This document shows positions 1,186-15,738 of a DNA stretch of 23,665 nucleotides, piece after piece. The stretch comes from a virus, in IMG/VR virus record IMGVR_UViG_3300037450_000167, positions 1-23,665 of that record; one strand, written 5' to 3'. The notes below the pieces were generated by a model. The model worked only from the letters and a program-made list of their open reading frames with translations, was not told where the DNA came from and did not search any database. Every line of letters begins with the position of its first letter. Position 1 is the stretch's first letter. Position numbers and translations under genes: made by a program.

Positions 1186-3660
1186 TTAAACGATAGCTAT
1201 CCTCCCAGGGGTGAACCTCAATATATTATCGGCCAGAGCGACGGCCTCCGGACGATGCGTAATGTAAAGACAAAGATCCATATTCGCCATAGTTGAAAAC
1301 GATCGATATAATTCAATGAAGTGCATCGCGTTATCCGCCGATAGGGCCCCGTCTTCTTCATCCATGAGCGCGGTTTGAAAATGGCGACCGGATTTCTCCT
1401 GACTGATCAGTGTTTGTGCCAGTCTAAGCGATTTTAATATCCAGACCTTTTCACCTCCGCTCAAATACTGCAGATGGGTTTCCGATCCATCACTGGCAAT
1501 AACGATAATTGAAAGGATCTCTTTGCCTTCTTCATCCTGCGTCTCGAATCTAACACTGTAATTCGGTCCGAATGTCATGGTTAATAGATCGTTGCTGTTC
1601 TTTGTGATCATGGGAGCGACGGCCTCGATCTCCAATGCACGCATGCCGTCCTTGCTGCAGGCAATCCGCAAATAGTCCCATTCTTGCTTTTGACCCTGTA
1701 CCCAGGAATATTTATTCCGGAGCTTGTCGACCTCGGTTTCCAGATCCTCTTTCTGCTTAACTTCGGCAAAATACTTGGGGATTTCGATATTCCAACGGAC
1801 TTCGTTTTTTTCCTCTTGATCCTGGAGCCTCCGTAACTCTCTGAGTTCTTCGTGCGTCTCATCTAACTGCTTTTCAGCCTCCGGGATAATATTAATCGCG
1901 TTGATTCCCTCCTGGATCTCATCAAGCTCACCTCGGATTAAATTCTTATCAGCTTCATGACTCGTTTTCGCTTTTTCTGACAAAGAGACAATCTGCTCCA
2001 TTTGAGATTTTAAAGCAGCGCTCGCGCTTTCTGCAGCTAATAGATCTGTATGTCTTGCGGCTGCAGGCAGAGATTTTTCGATAACATTATTGATGATGTT
2101 TATTTGAGCTGAGATTTTATCTGCGCTATCTGATACCTTGTCGCTCTTGGCCTCCAGCTCCTCGATTATTGCCCGACTGGCTGTCTGTTTATCTTCCTCC
2201 AACTTGCGGGTAACAGCGGCCTTATCTTCGAGCCTTTTTAGCTCGGTTTCTGTGATGAGCAGCTTATCAATCTCGCTATCATGTTTAACCTTCAGATCTT
2301 TAAGCATTTGCGCTTTGAGCGTGGCCATTGCCTCTCTTGCATCGGGCAGCGCGTCGCGATTGTCCAGGGAAACCGTGATCAGCCCGCAAACCTCACTCGT
2401 ACACGCGGGATCGATGGTATCGAGGACGCCAGCGCTTTTCTCCATGGCCTCTATGTGTGCTTGGGCCTGAACTAATACCGGATTTTTTTCTATCTCAAAA
2501 ATCAGGGTATTCAGTTTCTCGCAGCTGGCATCCTGTTCGACCTTCACCCTCCGAACATGGGCGATAGTCTCATCAGAAGCGAGCTCTTGCAGCCGATTGT
2601 TCGAGTCATGTATTTCCAGGTTATGCTCTTGGATTTTGACTGATAATTGTTGCTTGACACTGAAAAAGCTATTCTGTTTTTCATGTAGAGCCTTGTTTTC
2701 CTTTTCGCCATCCGCCTTGACCTTAACGGCATTCTCGATCGAATCACGAATATCTAAGATGGCCTTGGATTTTTTTAAATCACGGTCTAATGTCTCCAGT
2801 TGCATCATTCTTTCGACGTTGTCAGACTGGAAAGTGTCATCATTCGCTTTCTGTCTTATAACGAGTTTAGCCTTTATTTTGTTGAGGTCGTCGAGCCTTT
2901 GCCGATTTAAGGCATTTTCAACGGATTGCTTTTTTAGCAACTCGGTGGCCTTGGTAACCGCGACCGTTTTACTGTCATACTCTTTGAGATTCTCCTCACA
3001 ATCGGCCAGCATCTTACGGGCACCTTTCAGATCGTTGGCCGGATCGCCCATCAACTTAATGCGCTCATTGAGCTGTTCGCCCTGGGCCTCCAGGGCAGAG
3101 GCGGCAAAGTCGCACGCCTTAAAGGCGCCCTTGGCGGTATCTTCCCATTTGACGTAACGATCAAGGCGTAAAAATTCGGCAAACAGGTTTTTAAGCTCGG
3201 CTGGGCGCATATCTGATAGCTTCTTGGAGTTTTGGGCACAGAAGATCGAGGAGAAATATAGCGCCGGCGTGCCGAGAAGATCCTCGATGTAAGCATCATA
3301 GTTTGATACTTTGCTATCAACCTCGCTTGCTGAGTTGCCGTTTTTGTAGATATAGCCCTCATCGCTTCGGGTTGTGGTGGCATCGATCTTGATTACGGTC
3401 CGATAGATGTCCCCATGAAATTCAAAGGTCAGCTCTTTCATGCTGTCTTTTAAAAAACAGTGAGATTTCAGGGTACCTGTCCGGGATGGCAGCATCCTGT
3501 AAGGCTGCAGATTCTCCAGGAAGGTAGTTTTCCCAATGCCGTTGGCGCCCTCCAGGGCAACCAGTCCGGCGAGCTGGCTAAAATCAACCGTTATTTCATC
3601 AGTTTCCAGGCCTTTTTTAATCCCAATAAAGCCCCTCAGTTTGACTTTTATCAACCTCAT
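1186..3660 (-). CDS. SbcC/Rad50-like ATPase, exonuclease subunit
   Basis: This 824-residue ABC-type ATPase is the predicted partner of the SbcD-like nuclease encoded just upstream. Motifs in order: Walker A GANGIGKT (38-45); long charged coiled coil (about 175-420 and 430-690); a Cys pair at the apex, DPACTSEVCG (C420 and C425); ABC signature LSGGEK (733-738); Walker B/D-loop LMDEEDGALS (about 766-775); and an H-loop-like YITHRPEA. Rad50/SbcC heads bind ATP and DNA and gate the nuclease; phage T4 gp46 is the best-known phage version. The length lies between T4 gp46 (about 560) and E. coli SbcC (1,048). The hook is CX4C instead of the classical CXXC. The start ATG overlaps the SbcD-like stop codon by 4 nt, so the two are translationally coupled. 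Confidence 0.9.
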   Translation of the reverse strand: MRLIKVKLRGFIGIKKGLETDEITVDFSQLAGLVALEGANGIGKTTFLENLQPYRMLPSRTGTLKSHCFLKDSMKELTFEFHGDIYRTVIKIDATTTRSDEGYIYKNGNSASEVDSKVSNYDAYIEDLLGTPALYFSSIFCAQNSKKLSDMRPAELKNLFAEFLRLDRYVKWEDTAKGAFKACDFAASALEAQGEQLNERIKLMGDPANDLKGARKMLADCEENLKEYDSKTVAVTKATELLKKQSVENALNRQRLDDLNKIKAKLVIRQKANDDTFQSDNVERMMQLETLDRDLKKSKAILDIRDSIENAVKVKADGEKENKALHEKQNSFFSVKQQLSVKIQEHNLEIHDSNNRLQELASDETIAHVRRVKVEQDASCEKLNTLIFEIEKNPVLVQAQAHIEAMEKSAGVLDTIDPACTSEVCGLITVSLDNRDALPDAREAMATLKAQMLKDLKVKHDSEIDKLLITETELKRLEDKAAVTRKLEEDKQTASRAIIEELEAKSDKVSDSADKISAQINIINNVIEKSLPAAARHTDLLAAESASAALKSQMEQIVSLSEKAKTSHEADKNLIRGELDEIQEGINAINIIPEAEKQLDETHEELRELRRLQDQEEKNEVRWNIEIPKYFAEVKQKEDLETEVDKLRNKYSWVQGQKQEWDYLRIACSKDGMRALEIEAVAPMITKNSNDLLTMTFGPNYSVRFETQDEEGKEILSIIVIASDGSETHLQYLSGGEKVWILKSLRLAQTLISQEKSGRHFQTALMDEEDGALSADNAMHFIELYRSFSTMANMDLCLYITHRPEAVALADNILRFTPGRIAIV

Positions 3661-4967
3661 ATAACCACCTCCCTTTTGATGCTTTCGTACAACTCCTCGG
3701 GTTCCAGTTCTTCGAGCATGTCCGCCTTTAGCAATACCGCCTCTGTAATGTCCTCATTGATGATCTTGGCCCTGGTTGTCAGCTTATCCCTCAGTGTCTC
3801 AACTTCCAGCACGAGGGCGGACCGGACATTCGGCCTGGGCAATCTGGCAATATTCATTTGATAATCGCGAGGACCGACCTTGTCGGCGACCAGGTCTTTG
3901 ATCCCCTGTTCGTTGATGGCGTGAGCCATGTCCTGATAGATTTTGATATCATGTCTAATAATCGCGTGGGGATTGCTGGTAAGCGTTTGGATCGTGCTGA
4001 TAATTGCGATTTTGACGGCCTCTTTAGTCCCAGTATTTAACAGATCGTCTTTTAGCCTGATAAGCAATGGCGACGGGGTATGAATGAAATCCTCTACTTT
4101 GAGCTCCCAATGACCGCCCATGTCGACCAGTTCGAGCCCATGGACATAAAAGCCTTTGGCCTCCATTTCGCCAAAGTCGGTGGCAAACAGCGAGCCCGGA
4201 TAAAAGATGTTGTCGCCTATCTTCTGTTGGGCGTGGATATGACCCATGCAAACAATATCGGGCTTGGCCAGAGCGATATGCTCGCGGGCAACCTCGATAT
4301 CCAGCCCGGTTAGCGCCTGGGAAGGATGGATAAACGCACCGCCTATCGACCAATGACCCATTAGAATATGGGGTACAATGGGCGAATGGCCTTGTTGCCG
4401 AAGATTGATATTGAATTGATTTCGATTTGCTCCCATCGATGCGAAGATGGAGCCCAACGCGGTTGCTATCTCTTGATCGGATGTTTGAATGTCAGAGCCG
4501 GATTGAAAATACTGTTTTGTGAACGCAGGCACTCCAGATATTAAAGCGACGGGTTCGAGATCGTCTCGCAGCGGCGGACTTTGCCAAGCCATAAACTCAT
4601 GATCGGCGCCAAACTTTTCAGCATACAGGCAAATTGTTTCCGGCTGATCCATTACATAGACCGGAAAGCCCTCATTGACATTGCGGATTAACAGCGGCGC
4701 TTTGCCGTCATGGCTGGGTGTACCTGATAAAATGATTACCGGAGCGACCCGGGCAAGCCGGCGGATTGTGCCGATCGCCAACCGGGCGGCCTCCGATTCT
4801 TGGCGGACCTGTCTATGATTATAGATGTCGCCTGCAATGACAACCAGCTCGGGGATAATCTTCTCGGTTTTAGCAACCAAAAAATCCAGGCAGGCCGTCG
4901 CGTCCTCTAAAAACTCATCGCATACATGCCAATCGGCTGTATGCACTATTGCTAATTCACTGTTCAT
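3657..4967 (-). CDS. SbcD/Mre11-like metallophosphoesterase nuclease subunit
   Basis: This is a 436-residue calcineurin-type nuclease. Start ATG 4967 is chosen because AAGGAG lies 5 nt upstream; an ATG at 4982 would lack one. Phosphoesterase motifs: DWH (D12, H14), AGDIYNHR (G46-D47), SGTPSHD (about 81-87), MGHWS and finally MGHIHAQQ (the GHxH motif). The first, second, fourth and fifth motifs match Mre11/SbcD. The third is GTPSHD where Mre11 has GNHD, so the metal-contacting Asn appears replaced while the catalytic His and Asp remain. With the SbcC-like subunit it should form a double-strand end-processing nuclease analogous to T4 gp47/gp46. The pair sits directly after a putative annealing protein, suggesting a complete phage recombination module. 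Confidence 0.9.
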   Translation of the reverse strand: MNSELAIVHTADWHVCDEFLEDATACLDFLVAKTEKIIPELVVIAGDIYNHRQVRQESEAARLAIGTIRRLARVAPVIILSGTPSHDGKAPLLIRNVNEGFPVYVMDQPETICLYAEKFGADHEFMAWQSPPLRDDLEPVALISGVPAFTKQYFQSGSDIQTSDQEIATALGSIFASMGANRNQFNINLRQQGHSPIVPHILMGHWSIGGAFIHPSQALTGLDIEVAREHIALAKPDIVCMGHIHAQQKIGDNIFYPGSLFATDFGEMEAKGFYVHGLELVDMGGHWELKVEDFIHTPSPLLIRLKDDLLNTGTKEAVKIAIISTIQTLTSNPHAIIRHDIKIYQDMAHAINEQGIKDLVADKVGPRDYQMNIARLPRPNVRSALVLEVETLRDKLTTRAKIINEDITEAVLLKADMLEELEPEELYESIKREVVI

Positions 4968-4978
4968 AAGCGCTCCTT

Positions 4979-6037
4979 TCAAAATGGGATATCATCATCC
5001 TCCGGTTTGTCTTTCAGTAGGTCCAGGTGGTCCTTGATTTTCAGCAGCTCTATATCCGTCATATCTGACAGATTATTTTTGCCCATCCTTTTGACCAAAC
5101 TTTCCAGATCATAACCCTTACTTTTGGCCAATGTTCCGATATGGGTGATCTGGCTTTTGGTGTCCCATAGGCCGAATTCGGCATCATCGGCGGGCGAATC
5201 GTTGCCCTCCTCGGAGGTATCATCATCCTCGGTTTCAACCTCGGTTTCAACTCCGTTGGCTTCTACGACTTCGGCATCGCCATTATAGGTGTCTTTGGGG
5301 GGTGTCCCTGGGAGTTGCAGTGGAGGTGTGTTCATGCCAAATATGGTGCTCTGAGCTCCCAAGGACATCATTGTCACAATGCGCTTAACCTCCGGATCAT
5401 CGTAATCCGGCTGATAAGTGATGCGCACCGCGACAAAGGGTTTTTGCAGCTCGACTTTCGTGTATTTGTTTTTGAGGCCCAACAGCGCCCGGATAACACG
5501 GTTACGAGCCCCGGACTCACAGCGGGCAGCTCGGTGTTTTCGAATCTGTCTCATATCACGACCGACGCAATAAGCGACATATTCCTCCAGCTCCTTGCCA
5601 TGCTTGGCGTAATCGCCCTTTTGGCCCTTTTCTCGGTATGAGTGTACGAGATCATCCTCATGGGCGATAAGATCCATGTCGTAATATGCTTTGACGGGTA
5701 CGAGTTGCCCGTCGCTTTTGCGGATCGCCCCAAAGGCCTCGAAGGCGATGTAATTCGGATCTTTCTTATCGTCGACGCGGCGCGATCCCGTTTGGTCCGG
5801 CCATAATATTCCAGCCAGGACAGCCAGCTTGTCGAGGCCCTGCTTTTTAACGATAAATGCGTTCTTTGAATTTCGGTCCTTGTAAACGTCTCCATAATCG
5901 GGATCTGGTGACAAAGAAACCGTCTCTACGGTCGCTTTATGATACTTTGACAGTCCCTCCAGGGTAATGGCAGGGGTTAAAATATTGTAGCCCTCATCCT
6001 GGTATTTTTTCAAAAGTTTGGCCGGGTCAGTTGCCAT
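4979..6037 (-). CDS. Putative single-strand annealing / ssDNA-binding recombination protein with SSB-like C-terminus
   Basis: This 352-residue protein starts at ATG 6037, with AGGAGG 7 nt upstream; a start at 6076 would add 13 residues but has no such site. The first about 235 residues are folded. They include GLDKLAVLAGI, a DPNYIAFEAFGAIRKSDGQ strand pair, and a basic segment with ARCESGARNRVIRALLGL followed by YTKVELQKPF. That segment resembles the conserved block of phage single-strand annealing proteins, in which an [ES]-x-A-x-x-R-A-[IL]-R helix is typical. Residues about 260-300 are acidic and flexible. A small C-terminal domain follows, and the protein ends in EDDDIPF. The last six residues, DDDIPF, are identical to the tip of E. 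coli SSB, which recruits SSB-binding repair proteins. Operon company (SbcCD-like) supports recombination. The exact family is uncertain. Confidence 0.6.
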   Translation of the reverse strand: MATDPAKLLKKYQDEGYNILTPAITLEGLSKYHKATVETVSLSPDPDYGDVYKDRNSKNAFIVKKQGLDKLAVLAGILWPDQTGSRRVDDKKDPNYIAFEAFGAIRKSDGQLVPVKAYYDMDLIAHEDDLVHSYREKGQKGDYAKHGKELEEYVAYCVGRDMRQIRKHRAARCESGARNRVIRALLGLKNKYTKVELQKPFVAVRITYQPDYDDPEVKRIVTMMSLGAQSTIFGMNTPPLQLPGTPPKDTYNGDAEVVEANGVETEVETEDDDTSEEGNDSPADDAEFGLWDTKSQITHIGTLAKSKGYDLESLVKRMGKNNLSDMTDIELLKIKDHLDLLKDKPEDDDIPF

Positions 6038-6398: not shown

Positions 6399-7127
6399 GT
6401 GAAGATCATCTACGAGCCCAAAGGGGCGGCGCTCGAATACTCAAAACTCGCGCTAAACCCATACTTGGGCTGCACGCATGCCTGTGTTTATTGTTACAAC
6501 AATGGACGCCATTCCAAAAAAGGGGAATTTTTCAAAAGCGCCAAGCCTCGCATGGGGATCATACTGGATATCATCAAAGACCTAAAAACACTCAAAGACA
6601 AATACGGTAATGATTGCCCGGAGATTCAAATATCCTTTCTTGGCGATGCTTACCAGCCTGCAGAATCGACCATCGGTTTAACCCGCCTGATTATCCAACA
6701 AATCATTCACAGCAATCTGCCCTTTACAATTCTGACAAAATCAAGTCTTATTCTTCGGGATCTTGATATCCTGGCACCATATCGAAAATTTCGCCTGGGG
6801 ATTTCCTTTACCACGGTTGACCAAAGAGAGGCGGCCGAATGGGAACCTGGGACCGGATACGTTGAGGACCGCATTAGCGTTATGCGAAAATTCAAAGACC
6901 TGGGAGTAAAAACCTGGGTTTCATTAGAGCCTGTTATGCGCGTCGAATCAACTATCAACGTGATAAAAAAAGTTCATTACCATACCGATCATTTTTGGAT
7001 CGGCGCATTAAATCACATGAGCCCACCGGAGCCTATAAATCTACCCGAAGCCCACCGCGATATCATGAAGGCTCTGGAATTCCGTCATTGTAAATATAAG
7101 TTTAAAGCGAGCTTCACAGATATGTGA
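6399..7127 (+). CDS. Radical SAM protein (SplB-related type)
   Basis: This 242-residue protein starts at GTG 6399, with GGAG 9 nt upstream. It carries the radical SAM cluster motif C-x3-C-x2-C at C25, C29 and C32 (GCTHACVYCYNNG). Downstream are a strand ending SFLGDAYQPAE, an FTILTKS strand and GISFTT, the order of conserved strands in the SplB/photoproduct-lyase-like branch. In the family, a [4Fe-4S] cluster cleaves S-adenosylmethionine to give a 5'-deoxyadenosyl radical; the substrate here is unknown. It is about two-thirds the length of Bacillus SplB. It sits 18 nt after the regulator gene and overlaps the replication initiator by 4 nt, so it is expressed early with replication genes. DNA base modification or lesion repair is a reasonable guess, not shown. 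Confidence 0.8.
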   Translation: MKIIYEPKGAALEYSKLALNPYLGCTHACVYCYNNGRHSKKGEFFKSAKPRMGIILDIIKDLKTLKDKYGNDCPEIQISFLGDAYQPAESTIGLTRLIIQQIIHSNLPFTILTKSSLILRDLDILAPYRKFRLGISFTTVDQREAAEWEPGTGYVEDRISVMRKFKDLGVKTWVSLEPVMRVESTINVIKKVHYHTDHFWIGALNHMSPPEPINLPEAHRDIMKALEFRHCKYKFKASFTDM

Positions 7128-8023
7128 AAATGCCGTCACGCGATTTTGACCCCAAGGAAGGGGGTTACACTCAAATCATGAACGAGTTTATCGATAACCT
7201 GACCAACTATCGCTTAGATTCAAACGAATGGTCCCTGGTAATGCTGATCATACGTAATAGCTGGGGAATCAAAGGGCAGGCCTGGGCTCAAAAACTGACA
7301 TGGGATAAGATGAAAGAAAAGACAGGCTTAGGCAACGGACCACTTGGATATGCCCGCGCTAAGCTGATTGCCCGTAATTTCGTTCATACCCGGAAAAACG
7401 GCCGTCGCACCCACTATAAAATCAACTCGAAGTATGAAACCTGGATACCCGAGGACCAATTACCAACCTACCGCAAGGCGCCCAAACTCCACTCCAGTGA
7501 AGTTAAAACCAAACTCCACTCCAGTGAAGTTTCAAACTCCACTCCAGTGGAGTTTGAACTCCACTCCAGTGGAGTTGTACCTTATAAAGAAAGAATAAAG
7601 AAAACTGTTAAAGAAACCCCTATAATCCCCAACGGAAATGGCGAGGGCGGATCTACCGTTTTGACGAAAAAACAGATCGTCGAGCAAGATGCTAAAGCCG
7701 TCGTCGATTATATGAATGAGCTCTCCGGAAAAACTTTCAAGCACTCCGATACCAGTCTATCAAAAATCCGGGGACGCCTCCGGGAAGGGTACACCCTGGA
7801 ACAATGCCTAACCGTATGCCTGAATAAATGGCTGGACCCGGATCATAAAGAGAAATACTATCGACCGATAACGCTCTTTCGTCCCAGTCTGTTCGAGTCG
7901 TATGTGAACGAAAAGGGCGCAAACCCGAAAATGTCAAAAAAGAAAGCCAAAATGTTTAGCACCATGGAGGCTTTTGCCAGGAGGTACCATGACCGACAGC
8001 AGGAAGCGCCAGGAAGCGATTGA
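7124..8023 (+). CDS. Phage replication initiator, O-like N-terminal domain
   Basis: This 299-residue protein starts at GTG 7124 overlapping the previous stop; ATG 7130 is an alternative start. Residues about 1-110 (YTQIMNEFIDNL, then LVMLIIRNSWGIKG, LTWDKMKEKTGL and GRRTHYKINSKY) match the winged-helix origin-binding domain of lambda O-type proteins. A linker (about 120-150) is encoded by four iterons and contains repeated LHSSEV-type peptides. The C-terminal about 190-275 segment (VVDYMNELSGKTFKHSD, then LFRPSLFESYVNE) matches a domain common at the end of phage replisome organizers. It should bind the origin within its own gene and recruit the helicase loader encoded next, by analogy with lambda O and P. 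Confidence 0.85.
   Translation: MKMPSRDFDPKEGGYTQIMNEFIDNLTNYRLDSNEWSLVMLIIRNSWGIKGQAWAQKLTWDKMKEKTGLGNGPLGYARAKLIARNFVHTRKNGRRTHYKINSKYETWIPEDQLPTYRKAPKLHSSEVKTKLHSSEVSNSTPVEFELHSSGVVPYKERIKKTVKETPIIPNGNGEGGSTVLTKKQIVEQDAKAVVDYMNELSGKTFKHSDTSLSKIRGRLREGYTLEQCLTVCLNKWLDPDHKEKYYRPITLFRPSLFESYVNEKGANPKMSKKKAKMFSTMEAFARRYHDRQQEAPGSD
7484..7620. repeat. Putative replication origin: four palindromic iterons plus AT-rich tract
   Basis: Four 21-bp copies of the core AACTCCACTCCAGTGRAGTT lie at 7484-7504, 7511-7531, 7534-7554 and 7556-7576, with starts 27, 23 and 22 bp apart. The last two copies have a perfect inverted repeat, CTCCACT-CC-AGTGGAG; the first two have one mismatch. An A/T-rich tract (about 7581-7620) follows. 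Four palindromic iterons inside an O-like gene followed by an AT-rich unwinding region is the organisation of lambda ori. Confidence 0.8.
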
Positions 8024-8645
8024 CAAGACGTTGCTGATTATGTGCCGGTATTATGAACAGCAATTAACCGATGATGTTATTGAGATTTATCATCTACTTT
8101 GGGCGAAATACGAAACAGAGGATATAACATCAGCCTGCTATATTTGGATGGAAAAAAGCCGATGGTTTCCCAAAGGTAATGAGATTATCGAGCTGATTGA
8201 AAAACAAAAAGGCCCACAGATAAGCCTCCAGACCCGAGCCCAACAGCAATGGCGCGTTATTCTCCAGCAGTTAAAACGCCATGGACCATATCACCCACCG
8301 AAATTCTCGGACCCCATCACGGCCGAACTGGTCAAAAATCAATTTTCATGGTCCTACCTGGCCAACATGAAAGAGTCGGAGGAGAACTGGGAGCAAAAAC
8401 GATGGTGCGAGGCTTTTGAGCTGGCAGCCGATCTCTATAAAGACGTGGAGCTCCTGGACGTTCCCGAGAGCCTAAAGAACCTTTTGGCGGATACCACAAA
8501 ACCTATCGCTGAAAAGGGCGAGCCGGTCCCACTCGATAAGATCACAGCGTTTAGAAAGATGTTAGAGTCCCAGGCCTTAAAAGATGATAAGGCTCTGGAT
8601 AAAACCAATGCGCGGCTTAGGGCGGATAAACTCGAAAATGAATAA
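7989..8645 (+). CDS. Putative helicase loader (lambda P position)
   Basis: This 218-residue protein starts at ATG 7989, because AGGAGG lies just upstream; a TTG five codons earlier contains that site and is unlikely. It is rich in aromatic residues and mostly helical (IMCRYYEQQLTDDVIEIYHLLW, then SACYIWMEKSRWFPKGNEIIELI). This is the pattern of short phage proteins that follow initiator genes and are often described as loader or replisome-organizer partners. No Walker motif is present, so it is not a DnaC-type ATPase. The 35-bp overlap with the O-like gene suggests coupled synthesis with the initiator. A role in delivering the host helicase to the origin is inferred from position and general character only. 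Confidence 0.6.
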   Translation: MTDSRKRQEAIDKTLLIMCRYYEQQLTDDVIEIYHLLWAKYETEDITSACYIWMEKSRWFPKGNEIIELIEKQKGPQISLQTRAQQQWRVILQQLKRHGPYHPPKFSDPITAELVKNQFSWSYLANMKESEENWEQKRWCEAFELAADLYKDVELLDVPESLKNLLADTTKPIAEKGEPVPLDKITAFRKMLESQALKDDKALDKTNARLRADKLENE

Positions 8646-11221: not shown

Positions 11222-12124
11222 ATGTCAGTCGATCACGAATTAAGAAGTATTGTTAATGGCATCTACGATTTACAACAGTTAAGAGTCAGCATAGGTAACC
11301 GGATTGTTTCCAGCTTCCGCATAAAATTAGGGATTAAACCCAGTGAAGACAAGAAAAAACGCAACAAAGAGGCCGAGAAACTGCTAAGAGCAATTCGGAA
11401 GGAATATAAAAGAATTACCGATGGGATTGTCAAAATCACGGTAAAATTTAAAATTCCTAAAGATACCTCGCTTATCGCCTCGGTGGCTGAGGTCATGCTA
11501 ATAAAGCAATATGAGGATGTTTTAAGCTGTGAGGAAATCGTCTTTGAAGATATGGGCGCAATCGTCAAAACCAGGCCTTTATGGAGCGCTTTTTTTCAGC
11601 ATGTAAAGGGATGCGGTCCGGTAGTCGCTGGCTTCCTTCTGGCCTATGTCGATATAGTGAAATCCGTAACCGTTTCGGCGCTTTGGTATTATTGCGGATA
11701 TGGCGTCGAAAAAGACGGGCTGGCAACGTCGCGGCGAAAAGAACACTTGATCGAGGTCGAATATCTCGACAAGGATGGAAAGACCCAAACTAAATGGGTA
11801 ATTCACCATAACCCAAGGGTTAGATCTAAATTGGCATTTGTCGGCGTCCGCGGACTCATGACGGCCAATGATTATTATAAAACCGATGTTTATGATCCCT
11901 ATAAGCATCGAATTAAATCTATGCCTAAGCACGCGAAAAAGACACCCTCACATATTGACAAAATGGCCAAGCGAAAAATGATCAAAGCGTTTTTACAAGA
12001 TCTTTGGCCGGTTTGGCGTGAATTAGAAGGCCTGTCAATAACCGATCCTTATGCCAAAGCCAAGTTGGGGATTAAACACGGCGATCACGCGACAATAACA
12101 GACGATCCAGCCAAGAGGATTTAG
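11222..12124 (+). CDS. tasA: TasA-like Nop-domain protein of a TIGR-Tas system
   Basis: This 300-residue protein starts at ATG 11222 with AGGAGGG upstream. Residues 1-115 are charged and mostly helical (a coiled-coil-like KKKRNKEAEKLLRAIRKEYK). Residues about 120-275 resemble the C-terminal (Transposase_20) domain of IS110 recombinases, the domain related to the Nop domain of box C/D snoRNP proteins. Features are FFQHVKGCGPVVAGFLLAYV (helix-hairpin-helix-like, GCGP at 130-133), ALWYYCGYG, HNPRVRSKLAFVGVRG, then DPYKHRI and a closing basic helix KMAKRKMIKAFLQDLW. There is no DEDD/RuvC or HNH nuclease domain, so it is not an active IS110 transposase. It matches the nuclease-less TasA type of TIGR-Tas. 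Its stop codon overlaps the first block of a 36-bp-unit guide array. It should bind array-derived RNAs and act in RNA-guided DNA recognition. The function in the phage is unknown. Confidence 0.8.
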   Translation: MSVDHELRSIVNGIYDLQQLRVSIGNRIVSSFRIKLGIKPSEDKKKRNKEAEKLLRAIRKEYKRITDGIVKITVKFKIPKDTSLIASVAEVMLIKQYEDVLSCEEIVFEDMGAIVKTRPLWSAFFQHVKGCGPVVAGFLLAYVDIVKSVTVSALWYYCGYGVEKDGLATSRRKEHLIEVEYLDKDGKTQTKWVIHHNPRVRSKLAFVGVRGLMTANDYYKTDVYDPYKHRIKSMPKHAKKTPSHIDKMAKRKMIKAFLQDLWPVWRELEGLSITDPYAKAKLGIKHGDHATITDDPAKRI

Positions 12125-13194
12125 AAAACCACCATCGCGTAGCGTGCCATACTCCCATAGAAACCCATACTCCACAAGCGTGCCATGATCACAAAGAAAC
12201 ACAACTGTGAAAAGCGAGCCAGGGAAAGCCAGAAACCCATGAATCCGTAGCGAGCCTGAAGGTGACAGTAACCCCTCGTGATTGAGCGAGTCAGGAACTT
12301 CGAGAAAACCGAAAAAGCACAGCGAGCCTGGGACTCACAGAAACCCTATGTCCCGGAGCGAGCCGAGAACTTTCAGAAACCCCAAAAATTTGAGCGAGCC
12401 TTGTAAATGGAGAAACCCAGCGATCTTCAGCGTGTCATGTTACAGCAGAAAACCATTATAAAAGAGCGTGCCAGAAATAGGGAGAAACCCATATTTCCAA
12501 AAGCGAGCCACCACGCAAGAGAAACCCTTACCACCAGAGCGAGCCGTTCAATCAGAGAAAACCAAGCCCGGAGAGCGAGCTATGAAATGTAAGAAACCCA
12601 TGAGACCTTAGCGTGCCAAATAACACAGATAAAAACAGAAATCTGAAGCGGGCCATAAACCGGTAGAAATCCACCAAAAAGGAGCGAGCCAGAAGTATAA
12701 AGAAACCCATTGAAGTATAGCGAGCCAGAGGTTCAAAGAAACCCTACACATTTGAGCGAGCCAGCCGTTCTTAGAAACCCATGAAGAGGAAGCGAGCCAA
12801 TGTCCGGTAGAAACCCTGAATGATTAAGCGAGCCTTTGAATGAAAGGAAACCTACATCGGTAAGCGAGCCACAAGCCCCGAGAAACCCATATACAAGAAG
12901 CGAGCCTGCCGGGGTAAGAAAACCCAGATCGAAAAGCGAGCCTTCGGTGCATAGAAACCCGCGATTTAGAAGCGAGCCAGACAATCGAAGGAAACCAGAC
13001 ATAGACAGCGAGCCGAATAGGTAGAGAAAACCATGTGTCTTTAGCGTGCCGATAACTCGGAGAAAACCAAAGTTTTACAGCGAGCCAGTGCCACATAGAA
13101 ACCCGTATCAAGTAAGCGAGCCCTATGTCGATAGGAAACCAAGCCGCGATAGCGAGCCAAGCAAAAAAAGAAAACCTACACCATCGAGCGTATG
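12123..13194 (+). repeat. TIGR array: 60 alternating 8-nt blocks, 59 spacers, 36-bp units
   Basis: Block X (AGCGAGCC) and block Y (AGAAACCC) alternate with spacers of exactly 10 nt, apart from two of 11 nt (before 12502 and before 12629), giving a 36-bp unit. X blocks number 30 (first 12141, last 13187): 20 are exact, five are AGCGTGCC and five are other variants, the last AGCGTATG. Y blocks number 30 (first 12123, last 13169): 15 are exact, eight AGAAAACC, three AGGAAACC and four others. The weakest unit is near 12574-12672 (AGCGAGCT, ATAAAAAC, AGCGGGCC). Spacers are all different. In TIGR systems a 36-nt guide with two short spacers is released per unit, and the paired repeats act like box C/D elements. 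The array is on the same strand as the Tas gene and is probably transcribed with it. Confidence 0.85.
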
Positions 13195-13350
13195 AAGCGG
13201 AAGCGTTGCCCTAATTATGAACAGTGTCGAGGCTGGGTACTTTGCAAAGGCCTGTGTCGATCCTGCTATGGCAAGGCCCATAAATTTTGGTATGCAAACC
13301 GCAAAGCAAGACAGAAAAATAAAGACCTGTCAAGTCAGACAGAAAAATAA
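13192..13350 (+). CDS. Cysteine-rich small protein at the end of the TIGR array
   Basis: This 52-residue protein has its ATG in the last, degenerate array block (AGCGTATG). It begins MKRKRCPNYEQC and continues RGWVLCKGLCRSCYGKAHKF, with five cysteines arranged as in a small zinc-binding knuckle, then a basic tail. A 14-bp direct repeat (AGACAGAAAAATAA at 13309-13322 and 13337-13350) makes up the 3' end; the second copy supplies the stop codon. No good ribosome binding site is visible, so translation may depend on the array transcript. The cysteine pattern suggests a real nucleic-acid-binding protein. Involvement in TIGR function is inferred from adjacency only. Confidence 0.5.
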   Translation: MKRKRCPNYEQCRGWVLCKGLCRSCYGKAHKFWYANRKARQKNKDLSSQTEK

Positions 13351-15631: not shown

Positions 15632-15738
15632 TTTATTTTGGGGTAGGGTTTGTGGCGTGGGTGGCGAAGTAGGTTAACGCGAGGGGTTGTGGCCCCCTTA
15701 TGCGCGGGTTCGAGTCCCGTCCCTCGCCCCAAAATAAA
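15632..15738 (+). repeat. 12-bp inverted repeat enclosing the tRNA gene
   Basis: TTTATTTTGGGG (15632-15643) is the exact inverse complement of CCCCAAAATAAA (15727-15738), with a further GGG/CCC pair inside. The right arm uses the last bases of the tRNA acceptor strand and its encoded CCA. The 5' flank therefore could pair with the tRNA 3' end and compete with the acceptor stem, or hold the precursor ends together for processing. Confidence 0.55.
15654..15731 (+). tRNA. tRNA-His (anticodon GTG)
   Basis: The cloverleaf can be drawn by eye. G-1 is at 15654; acceptor GCGTGGG (15655-15661) pairs with CCCTCGC (15721-15727) with one T-T mismatch at the fourth pair. The D arm is GCG / CGC with loop AAGTAGGTTAA. 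Anticodon stem AGGGG / CCCCT (15682-15686, 15694-15698) encloses loop TTGTGGC with anticodon GTG at 15689-15691. The variable loop is TATGC. The T arm is GCGGG, TTCGAGT, CCCGT. It is followed by discriminator C and an encoded CCA (15729-15731). The extra G-1 opposite C73 is the identity element of tRNA-His. The gene lies within the repeat-bounded cassette after the MerR-like gene. Confidence 0.9.

What the first reader, a model, noticed from the sequence alone, without database searches (positions are those of the whole stretch)
11222..13194. TIGR-Tas system in a phage genome: Nop-domain TasA-like protein followed directly by a 36-bp-unit guide array
Seen: a 300-residue protein with an IS110 C-terminal/Nop-like region and no RuvC, DEDD or HNH domain, then a 1,072-bp array of alternating 8-nt blocks (AGCGAGCC and AGAAACCC) and 10-nt spacers, giving 36 bp per unit. 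Known, from memory: TIGR-Tas systems carry arrays giving roughly 36-nt guides with two spacers and Nop-domain Tas proteins, with TasA lacking a nuclease. Inference: this is a TasA-type system inside a phage early region between an antirepressor and a helicase, so it may control host, rival phage or plasmid DNA without cutting.
Basis: partly seen in the sequence, partly recalled or inferred. Interest (0 to 1): 0.95.

Follow-up and report, generated by a model that had tools for sequence, protein, structure and literature searches.

The report
Phage TIGR-TasA RNA-guided DNA-binding system
This virus carries a compact, recently described kind of RNA-guided system (TIGR-Tas), made of one DNA-binding protein with no detectable nuclease and an array of thirty two-part guides; it is a clear member of that known family, but what it aims at is still unknown.

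Summary
ORF 11222-12124 encodes a 300-residue Tas protein: NCBIfam TIGR_Tas model at 106.8 bits (cut-off 100), profile matches to solved TasH (E 6e-75) and TasR (E 1e-45), and a confident AlphaFold model (pLDDT 90.5) closest to TasH and TasR, ahead of IS110 recombinases and Nop5. No RuvC, HNH or DEDD domain was found, so it is TasA-type, in a well-supported (100/99) clade. The array has 30 loop and 29 complete edge repeats at an 18-nt rhythm, plus half edges at both ends (chain score 414 against at most 17 in shuffles), with the expected box C/D pairs. Comparison with 198 loci adds detail: arrays near a tas gene always share its strand (165 of 165); the first half-edge often overlaps the tas stop codon, and here lies inside the gene; related arrays gain and lose mainly whole 36-nt units and reuse half-guides in register. 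The module sits in mostly unrelated viral backbones. No natural target was found above controls. Verdict: a new member of a known kind; its biological role is inferred.

The parts
11222..12124 (+). tasA: 300-aa Nop-domain Tas protein without a detectable nuclease
   Evidence: NF052498 TIGR_Tas_endo 106.8 bits, cut-off 100; TasR 9mty E 8e-15 and TasH 21kl E 1.4e-7 by phmmer; profile hits 5.9e-75 and 1.5e-45; Foldseek TasH 1.8e-8, TasR 2.1e-8
11327..11482 (+). Clade-specific, mostly helical segment (about residues 36-87) between the two coiled-coil helices (residues 5-35 and 88-116)
   Evidence: Model secondary structure; shorter in other solo-Nop relatives; 22-member clade, support 100/99
11570..12085 (+). 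C-terminal Nop/IS110-like RNA-binding region (about residues 117-288)
   Evidence: Aligned to TasR 165-312 and TasH 144-295; conserved columns G159, K255, Y277
12109..13190 (+). TIGR array: 30 guide units, from 5' half-edge AGCC to 3' half-edge AGCG
   Evidence: Chain of repeats, score 414 against at most 17 in shuffles
12109..12112 (+). 5'-truncated edge repeat inside the tasA coding sequence, in register with the array
12122..12130 (+). tasA stop codon TAG overlapping the first loop repeat AGAAAACC (12123-12130)
13187..13190 (+). 3'-truncated edge repeat ending the array
   Evidence: Read directly from the sequence, in register with the last unit

Best explanation
A TIGR-TasA system. tasA and the array lie on one strand and overlap, so they are very probably read as one transcript (inferred). 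A host RNase together with TasA would cut within each edge repeat, giving up to 30 guide RNAs of about 36 nt (inferred from published TasA, TasR and TasH data). A TasA dimer would hold one guide through the box C/D pairs of its edge and loop repeats. Spacer A then pairs with one target strand and spacer B with the other, over about 16-20 bp, opening and bending the DNA (inferred from the published TasR structure and targeting rules). With no nuclease domain, TasA would bind and block transcription or replication at the target rather than cut it. The likeliest targets are other mobile DNA or host genes, not the phage itself (inferred).
For: Family and fold. No nuclease domain. Array grammar: 30 loops and 29 full edges; edge pair 2-7 is G-C in 27 and G-U in 2 of 30, the extra edge pair 3-6 is C-G in 30 of 30, loop pair 2-7 is G-C in 28 of 30 and the loop interior is A-rich, as described for TasR. 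Truncated edges at both ends, as described. One strand for gene and array in 165 of 165 nearby pairs across related loci. No excess of own-contig matches for the window's guides.
Against: No expression, processing or binding data exist for this locus. No natural target was found, so what is silenced is unknown. No terminator-like site was seen on the + strand after the array, although published arrays usually have one. The NCBIfam family is named an endonuclease, although its 215-position model matches all 54 proteins scanned, and Pfam finds HNH in only 2 of them.
Confidence: 0.8

Rival explanations
1. The system serves the phage's own programme: guides bind the phage or prophage chromosome, or fixed host sites, to regulate genes or to bend DNA for integration or partition.
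For: Published suggestions include integrase help and ParB-linked TasA loci. One guide (spacers AAGCAAAAAA / TACACCATCG) has a 15 of 16 match in the window at 8392.
Against: The other 27 guides tested match the own contig no better than mispaired controls. A single 15 of 16 match is near chance once multiple testing is counted. No integrase or ParB was identified among the window proteins searched.
Confidence: 0.15
2. The protein cuts or nicks DNA, by itself or with a partner nuclease in trans, so that the system destroys its targets like TasH and TasR.
For: TasH proteins with HNH share the same repeat class; the NCBIfam name is endonuclease. The phage has SbcC/SbcD-like genes, but nothing links them to tasA.
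Against: No RuvC, HNH or DEDD domain by Pfam or in a confident model; the window belongs to a separate 22-member clade in which none was seen.
Confidence: 0.07
3. A degenerate IS110 transposase remnant next to an unrelated simple repeat.
For: PHROG 4285 is labelled transposase; 26 of 54 relatives also hit the IS110 model weakly.
Against: No DEDD domain; IS110 proteins are far weaker matches than Tas proteins by profile and fold; gene and array co-occur on one strand in many loci.
Confidence: 0.02

Closest known systems
TIGR-TasA (for example the Flavonifractor plautii locus; Faure et al. 2025, PMC12045711)
   Same: Solo Nop-domain protein, two alternating short repeats, 36-nt units, truncated edges at the array ends, phage setting.
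   Different: 30 units (most published arrays have 5-15); array start embedded in the tasA coding sequence; an extra mostly helical segment in the coiled coil of this clade.
TIGR-TasH (PDB 21kl, 9w04)
   Same: Nop fold; best structural match; HNH-bearing relatives share the repeat class AGCGAGCC / AGAAACCC.
   Different: No HNH domain in the window protein.
TIGR-TasR (PDB 9mty)
   Same: Nop fold, box C/D logic in edge and loop repeats.
   Different: No RuvC domain; box D begins AG here, not UG.
IS110-family RNA-guided recombinases (IS621, ISCro4)
   Same: Related Nop-like RNA-binding domain.
   Different: No DEDD domain; guide array instead of one bridge RNA.
Box C/D snoRNP protein Nop5
   Same: Nop domain and coiled coil.
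   Different: Weak fold match only; DNA rather than RNA is the expected target.

Membership tests
TIGR-Tas | Tas-family Nop-domain protein | tested here: met
   NF052498 above its curated cut-off; fold matches TasH and TasR
TIGR-Tas | Adjacent array of two alternating short repeats with about 8-12-nt spacers, about 36 nt per unit | tested here: met
TIGR-Tas | Box C/D motifs shared by edge and loop repeats, with an extra pair in the edge | tested here: met
   against the published description
TIGR-Tas | Truncated edge repeats at array ends | tested here: met
TIGR-Tas | Rho-independent terminator after the array | tested here: not met
   No + strand terminator-like site found after the array; described as typical, not obligatory
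TIGR-Tas | Processing into 36-nt tigRNAs bound by Tas | not testable with these tools
   Needs small-RNA sequencing
TIGR-Tas | Two-spacer DNA targeting | tested here: inconclusive
   No natural targets above controls
TasA subtype | No RuvC or HNH nuclease domain | tested here: met
   No Pfam domain; all-helical N-terminus in a confident model
IS110 transposase | DEDD domain | tested here: not met
   Absent from the Pfam search and from the model

The most novel reading that the evidence does not exclude
A phage-borne natural multiplex DNA-silencing machine: one nuclease-free TasA uses about thirty stored guides to block many sites in host or rival mobile DNA, and the guide store evolves inside phage populations by gain, loss and reshuffling of whole 36-nt units and half-guides, without any spacer-acquisition enzyme.
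Probability: 0.35. Interest if true: 0.75.

Novelty: new member of a known kind. Interest (0 to 1): 0.45.

Why it matters
What TasA does and how TIGR arrays gain guides are stated open questions in the founding paper. This locus is a clean, long example. The comparison made here gives about 2,100 distinct guide pairs from 198 loci and concrete patterns: same strand as the gene, half-edge at the stop codon, turnover mostly by whole 36-nt units, half-guides reused in register. These narrow how arrays evolve and give a data set for target searches with real hosts.

Tried and rejected
Target search. The predicted site (spacer A then reverse complement of spacer B) was derived from the published 8-nt 3' overhangs and the C-5 rule. 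It was tested with 9+9 and 8+8 bases and several gaps, with the opposite geometry as a check, on related loci: no excess over mispaired or rotated controls. An apparent excess at gaps 8 and 9 came largely from near-identical contigs. Window guides against the phage collection gave one hit at E 7, treated as chance. Two exact 18-bp scans of IMG/VR gave nothing.

Coding-sequence idea. Variant copies of one guide looked synonymous by eye, but differences showed no three-base rhythm within spacers (37 of 120 at multiples of 3) and none at the predicted phase across the junction (28 of 96). Rejected.

Palindromic targets. A and B of one unit are no more alike than in mispaired controls.

Swapped guides. 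No excess of guide pairs with A and B exchanged.

Relatives. No close relative of the protein or of the terminase by direct pattern scan of IMG/VR; none in plasmids; one isolated phage, Microcystis phage Mvi-JY20. No DNA match to the array in the phage collection. IS110-remnant and CRISPR-like readings rejected on fold and array grammar.

Full report
Observation. A chain search with two 8-nt seeds finds 30 loop-type (AGAAACCC) and 30 edge-type (AGCGAGCC) positions alternating every 18 nt from 12105 to 13176, scoring 414, against at most 17 in 200 shuffles and 9 in the rest of the window. The first edge position is only a half repeat (AGCC, 12109-12112) and a final half repeat (AGCG) stands at 13187-13190. 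So there are 29 complete edges, 30 loops and 30 guide units. Such 5' and 3' truncated edges are how published arrays begin and end.

The protein. Pfam finds nothing in it at E below 0.001. NCBIfam assigns it to TIGR_Tas (106.8 bits against a cut-off of 100), and the same model hits all 54 relatives examined. phmmer finds TasR (8e-15) and TasH (1.4e-7). A profile of the relatives finds TasH at 5.9e-75 and TasR at 1.5e-45, with IS621 and ISCro4 only at about 1e-6. AlphaFold2 with 54 sequences gives mean pLDDT 90.5 and pTM 0.84; the N-terminus is helical coiled coil with no RuvC-like sheet. Foldseek ranks TasH (1.8e-8) and TasR (2.1e-8) first, with IS110-family recombinases and Nop5 far behind. 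The protein is therefore TasA-type. In a tree of 54 relatives it falls on a long branch inside a 22-member clade with support 100/99; the HNH-type group, labelled by eye from the N-terminal sequences, is separate. Members of the window's clade carry a longer segment between the two coiled-coil helices than other solo-Nop relatives.

Array grammar. Within the window's edges, positions 2 and 7 can pair in 29 of 30 (G-C 27, G-U 2) and positions 3 and 6 are C-G in 30 of 30. Loops keep the 2-7 G-C pair in 28 of 30 and have an A-rich interior. This is the logic described from the TasR structure: one box C/D pair in both repeats, an additional pair in the edge only, and an A-rich tetraloop-like loop repeat. 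Across the units of this repeat class, spacer position 1 is A or G in about 95% and position 10 is mostly a purine, so the freely variable part is about 8 nt per spacer, like the 16-nt total reported for the TasH system. In the window itself these two biases are weaker.

Distribution. Further scans brought the held loci to 198, of which 195 hold arrays, with 3,085 units (near-identical contigs included) and 2,099 distinct guide pairs. Fifteen other window genes were compared with ORFs in these loci: apart from the replication-O-like protein (2 loci) and terminase (1 locus), none has a relative there, although only some kilobases on each side were held. The module thus sits in mostly unrelated viral backbones.

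Gene-array overlap. In 165 of 165 nearby gene-array pairs the array is on the tas strand, 115 downstream and 50 upstream. In many loci the first half-edge is formed with the tas stop codon (TGA followed by GCC, together like the second half of AGCGAGCC); in others a repeat contains the stop. In the window the half-edge ends three codons before the stop, and the TAG stop provides the first two bases of the first loop repeat. The last residues of the protein have low model confidence. This suggests one transcript whose processing starts at the end of the gene (inference).

How arrays change. Related arrays (for example L032, L086 and L057) share units in the same order, with gaps mostly of whole 36-nt units scattered along the array, not at one end. 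Copies of a guide pair differing at 1-4 positions number 86, against 8 in a mispaired control. Inside one locus the same spacer A occurs with a different B ten times, and the same B with a different A ten times, while A reused as B occurs once. This fits recombination at edge and loop repeats.

Targets. With the published geometry, in which spacers pair to opposite strands and cleavage leaves 3' overhangs, the site should read A followed by the reverse complement of B. No version of the search exceeded controls in the related loci or the window, and the phage collection gave only a chance-level match. The window's guides therefore do not obviously aim at the phage itself. One guide has a 15 of 16 match at 8392, near chance.

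Mechanism. Shown here: the family, the lack of a detectable nuclease domain, the array grammar and the one-strand layout. Inferred from published work on TasA, TasR and TasH (PMC12045711): processing to 36-nt guides, dimer binding, two-strand recognition and DNA bending. Inferred without direct support: blocking of transcription or replication on foreign DNA. The paper itself lists this, aid to integrases, and partition-like roles as open possibilities.

Verdict. This is a known kind of system, published in 2025, in a new phage. Its interest lies in the comparative patterns above and in the still open question of targets.

Noticed in passing
window 13192-13350: A 52-residue Cys-rich ORF (CPNYEQC...CKGLCRSC, zinc-finger-like) starts one base after the last truncated edge repeat. 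No Pfam match and no convincing relative in the TIGR loci.
   Followed up: partly
window 1186-4982 (-): A pair of genes resembling an SbcC/SbcD-type recombination ATPase and nuclease (AAA_23 weakly, Metallophos).
   Followed up: partly
window 6399-7127: A radical SAM protein (Pfam E 1e-12) in the phage replication region, just before a replication-O-like gene.
   Followed up: no
window 7482-7576: Four copies of a 23-27-bp tandem repeat inside the replication-O-like gene, possibly iterons of an origin.
   Followed up: no
window 8392 (+): 15 of 16 match to the predicted target of the last guide of the array, inside ORF 7974-8645; near chance.
   Followed up: partly
window 15655-15731: A tRNA-His gene (anticodon GTG) between the MerR-like gene and the terminase region.
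   Followed up: no
L121 4577-4895 (Microcystis phage Mvi-JY20, PP438412.1): An isolated phage carries the same repeat class with about 9 units beside a Tas gene annotated as hypothetical protein; a possible laboratory model.
   Followed up: partly
L019, L023, L045, L047, L117; L068: Some loci hold several separate arrays, and L068 has one of about 48 units.
   Followed up: no
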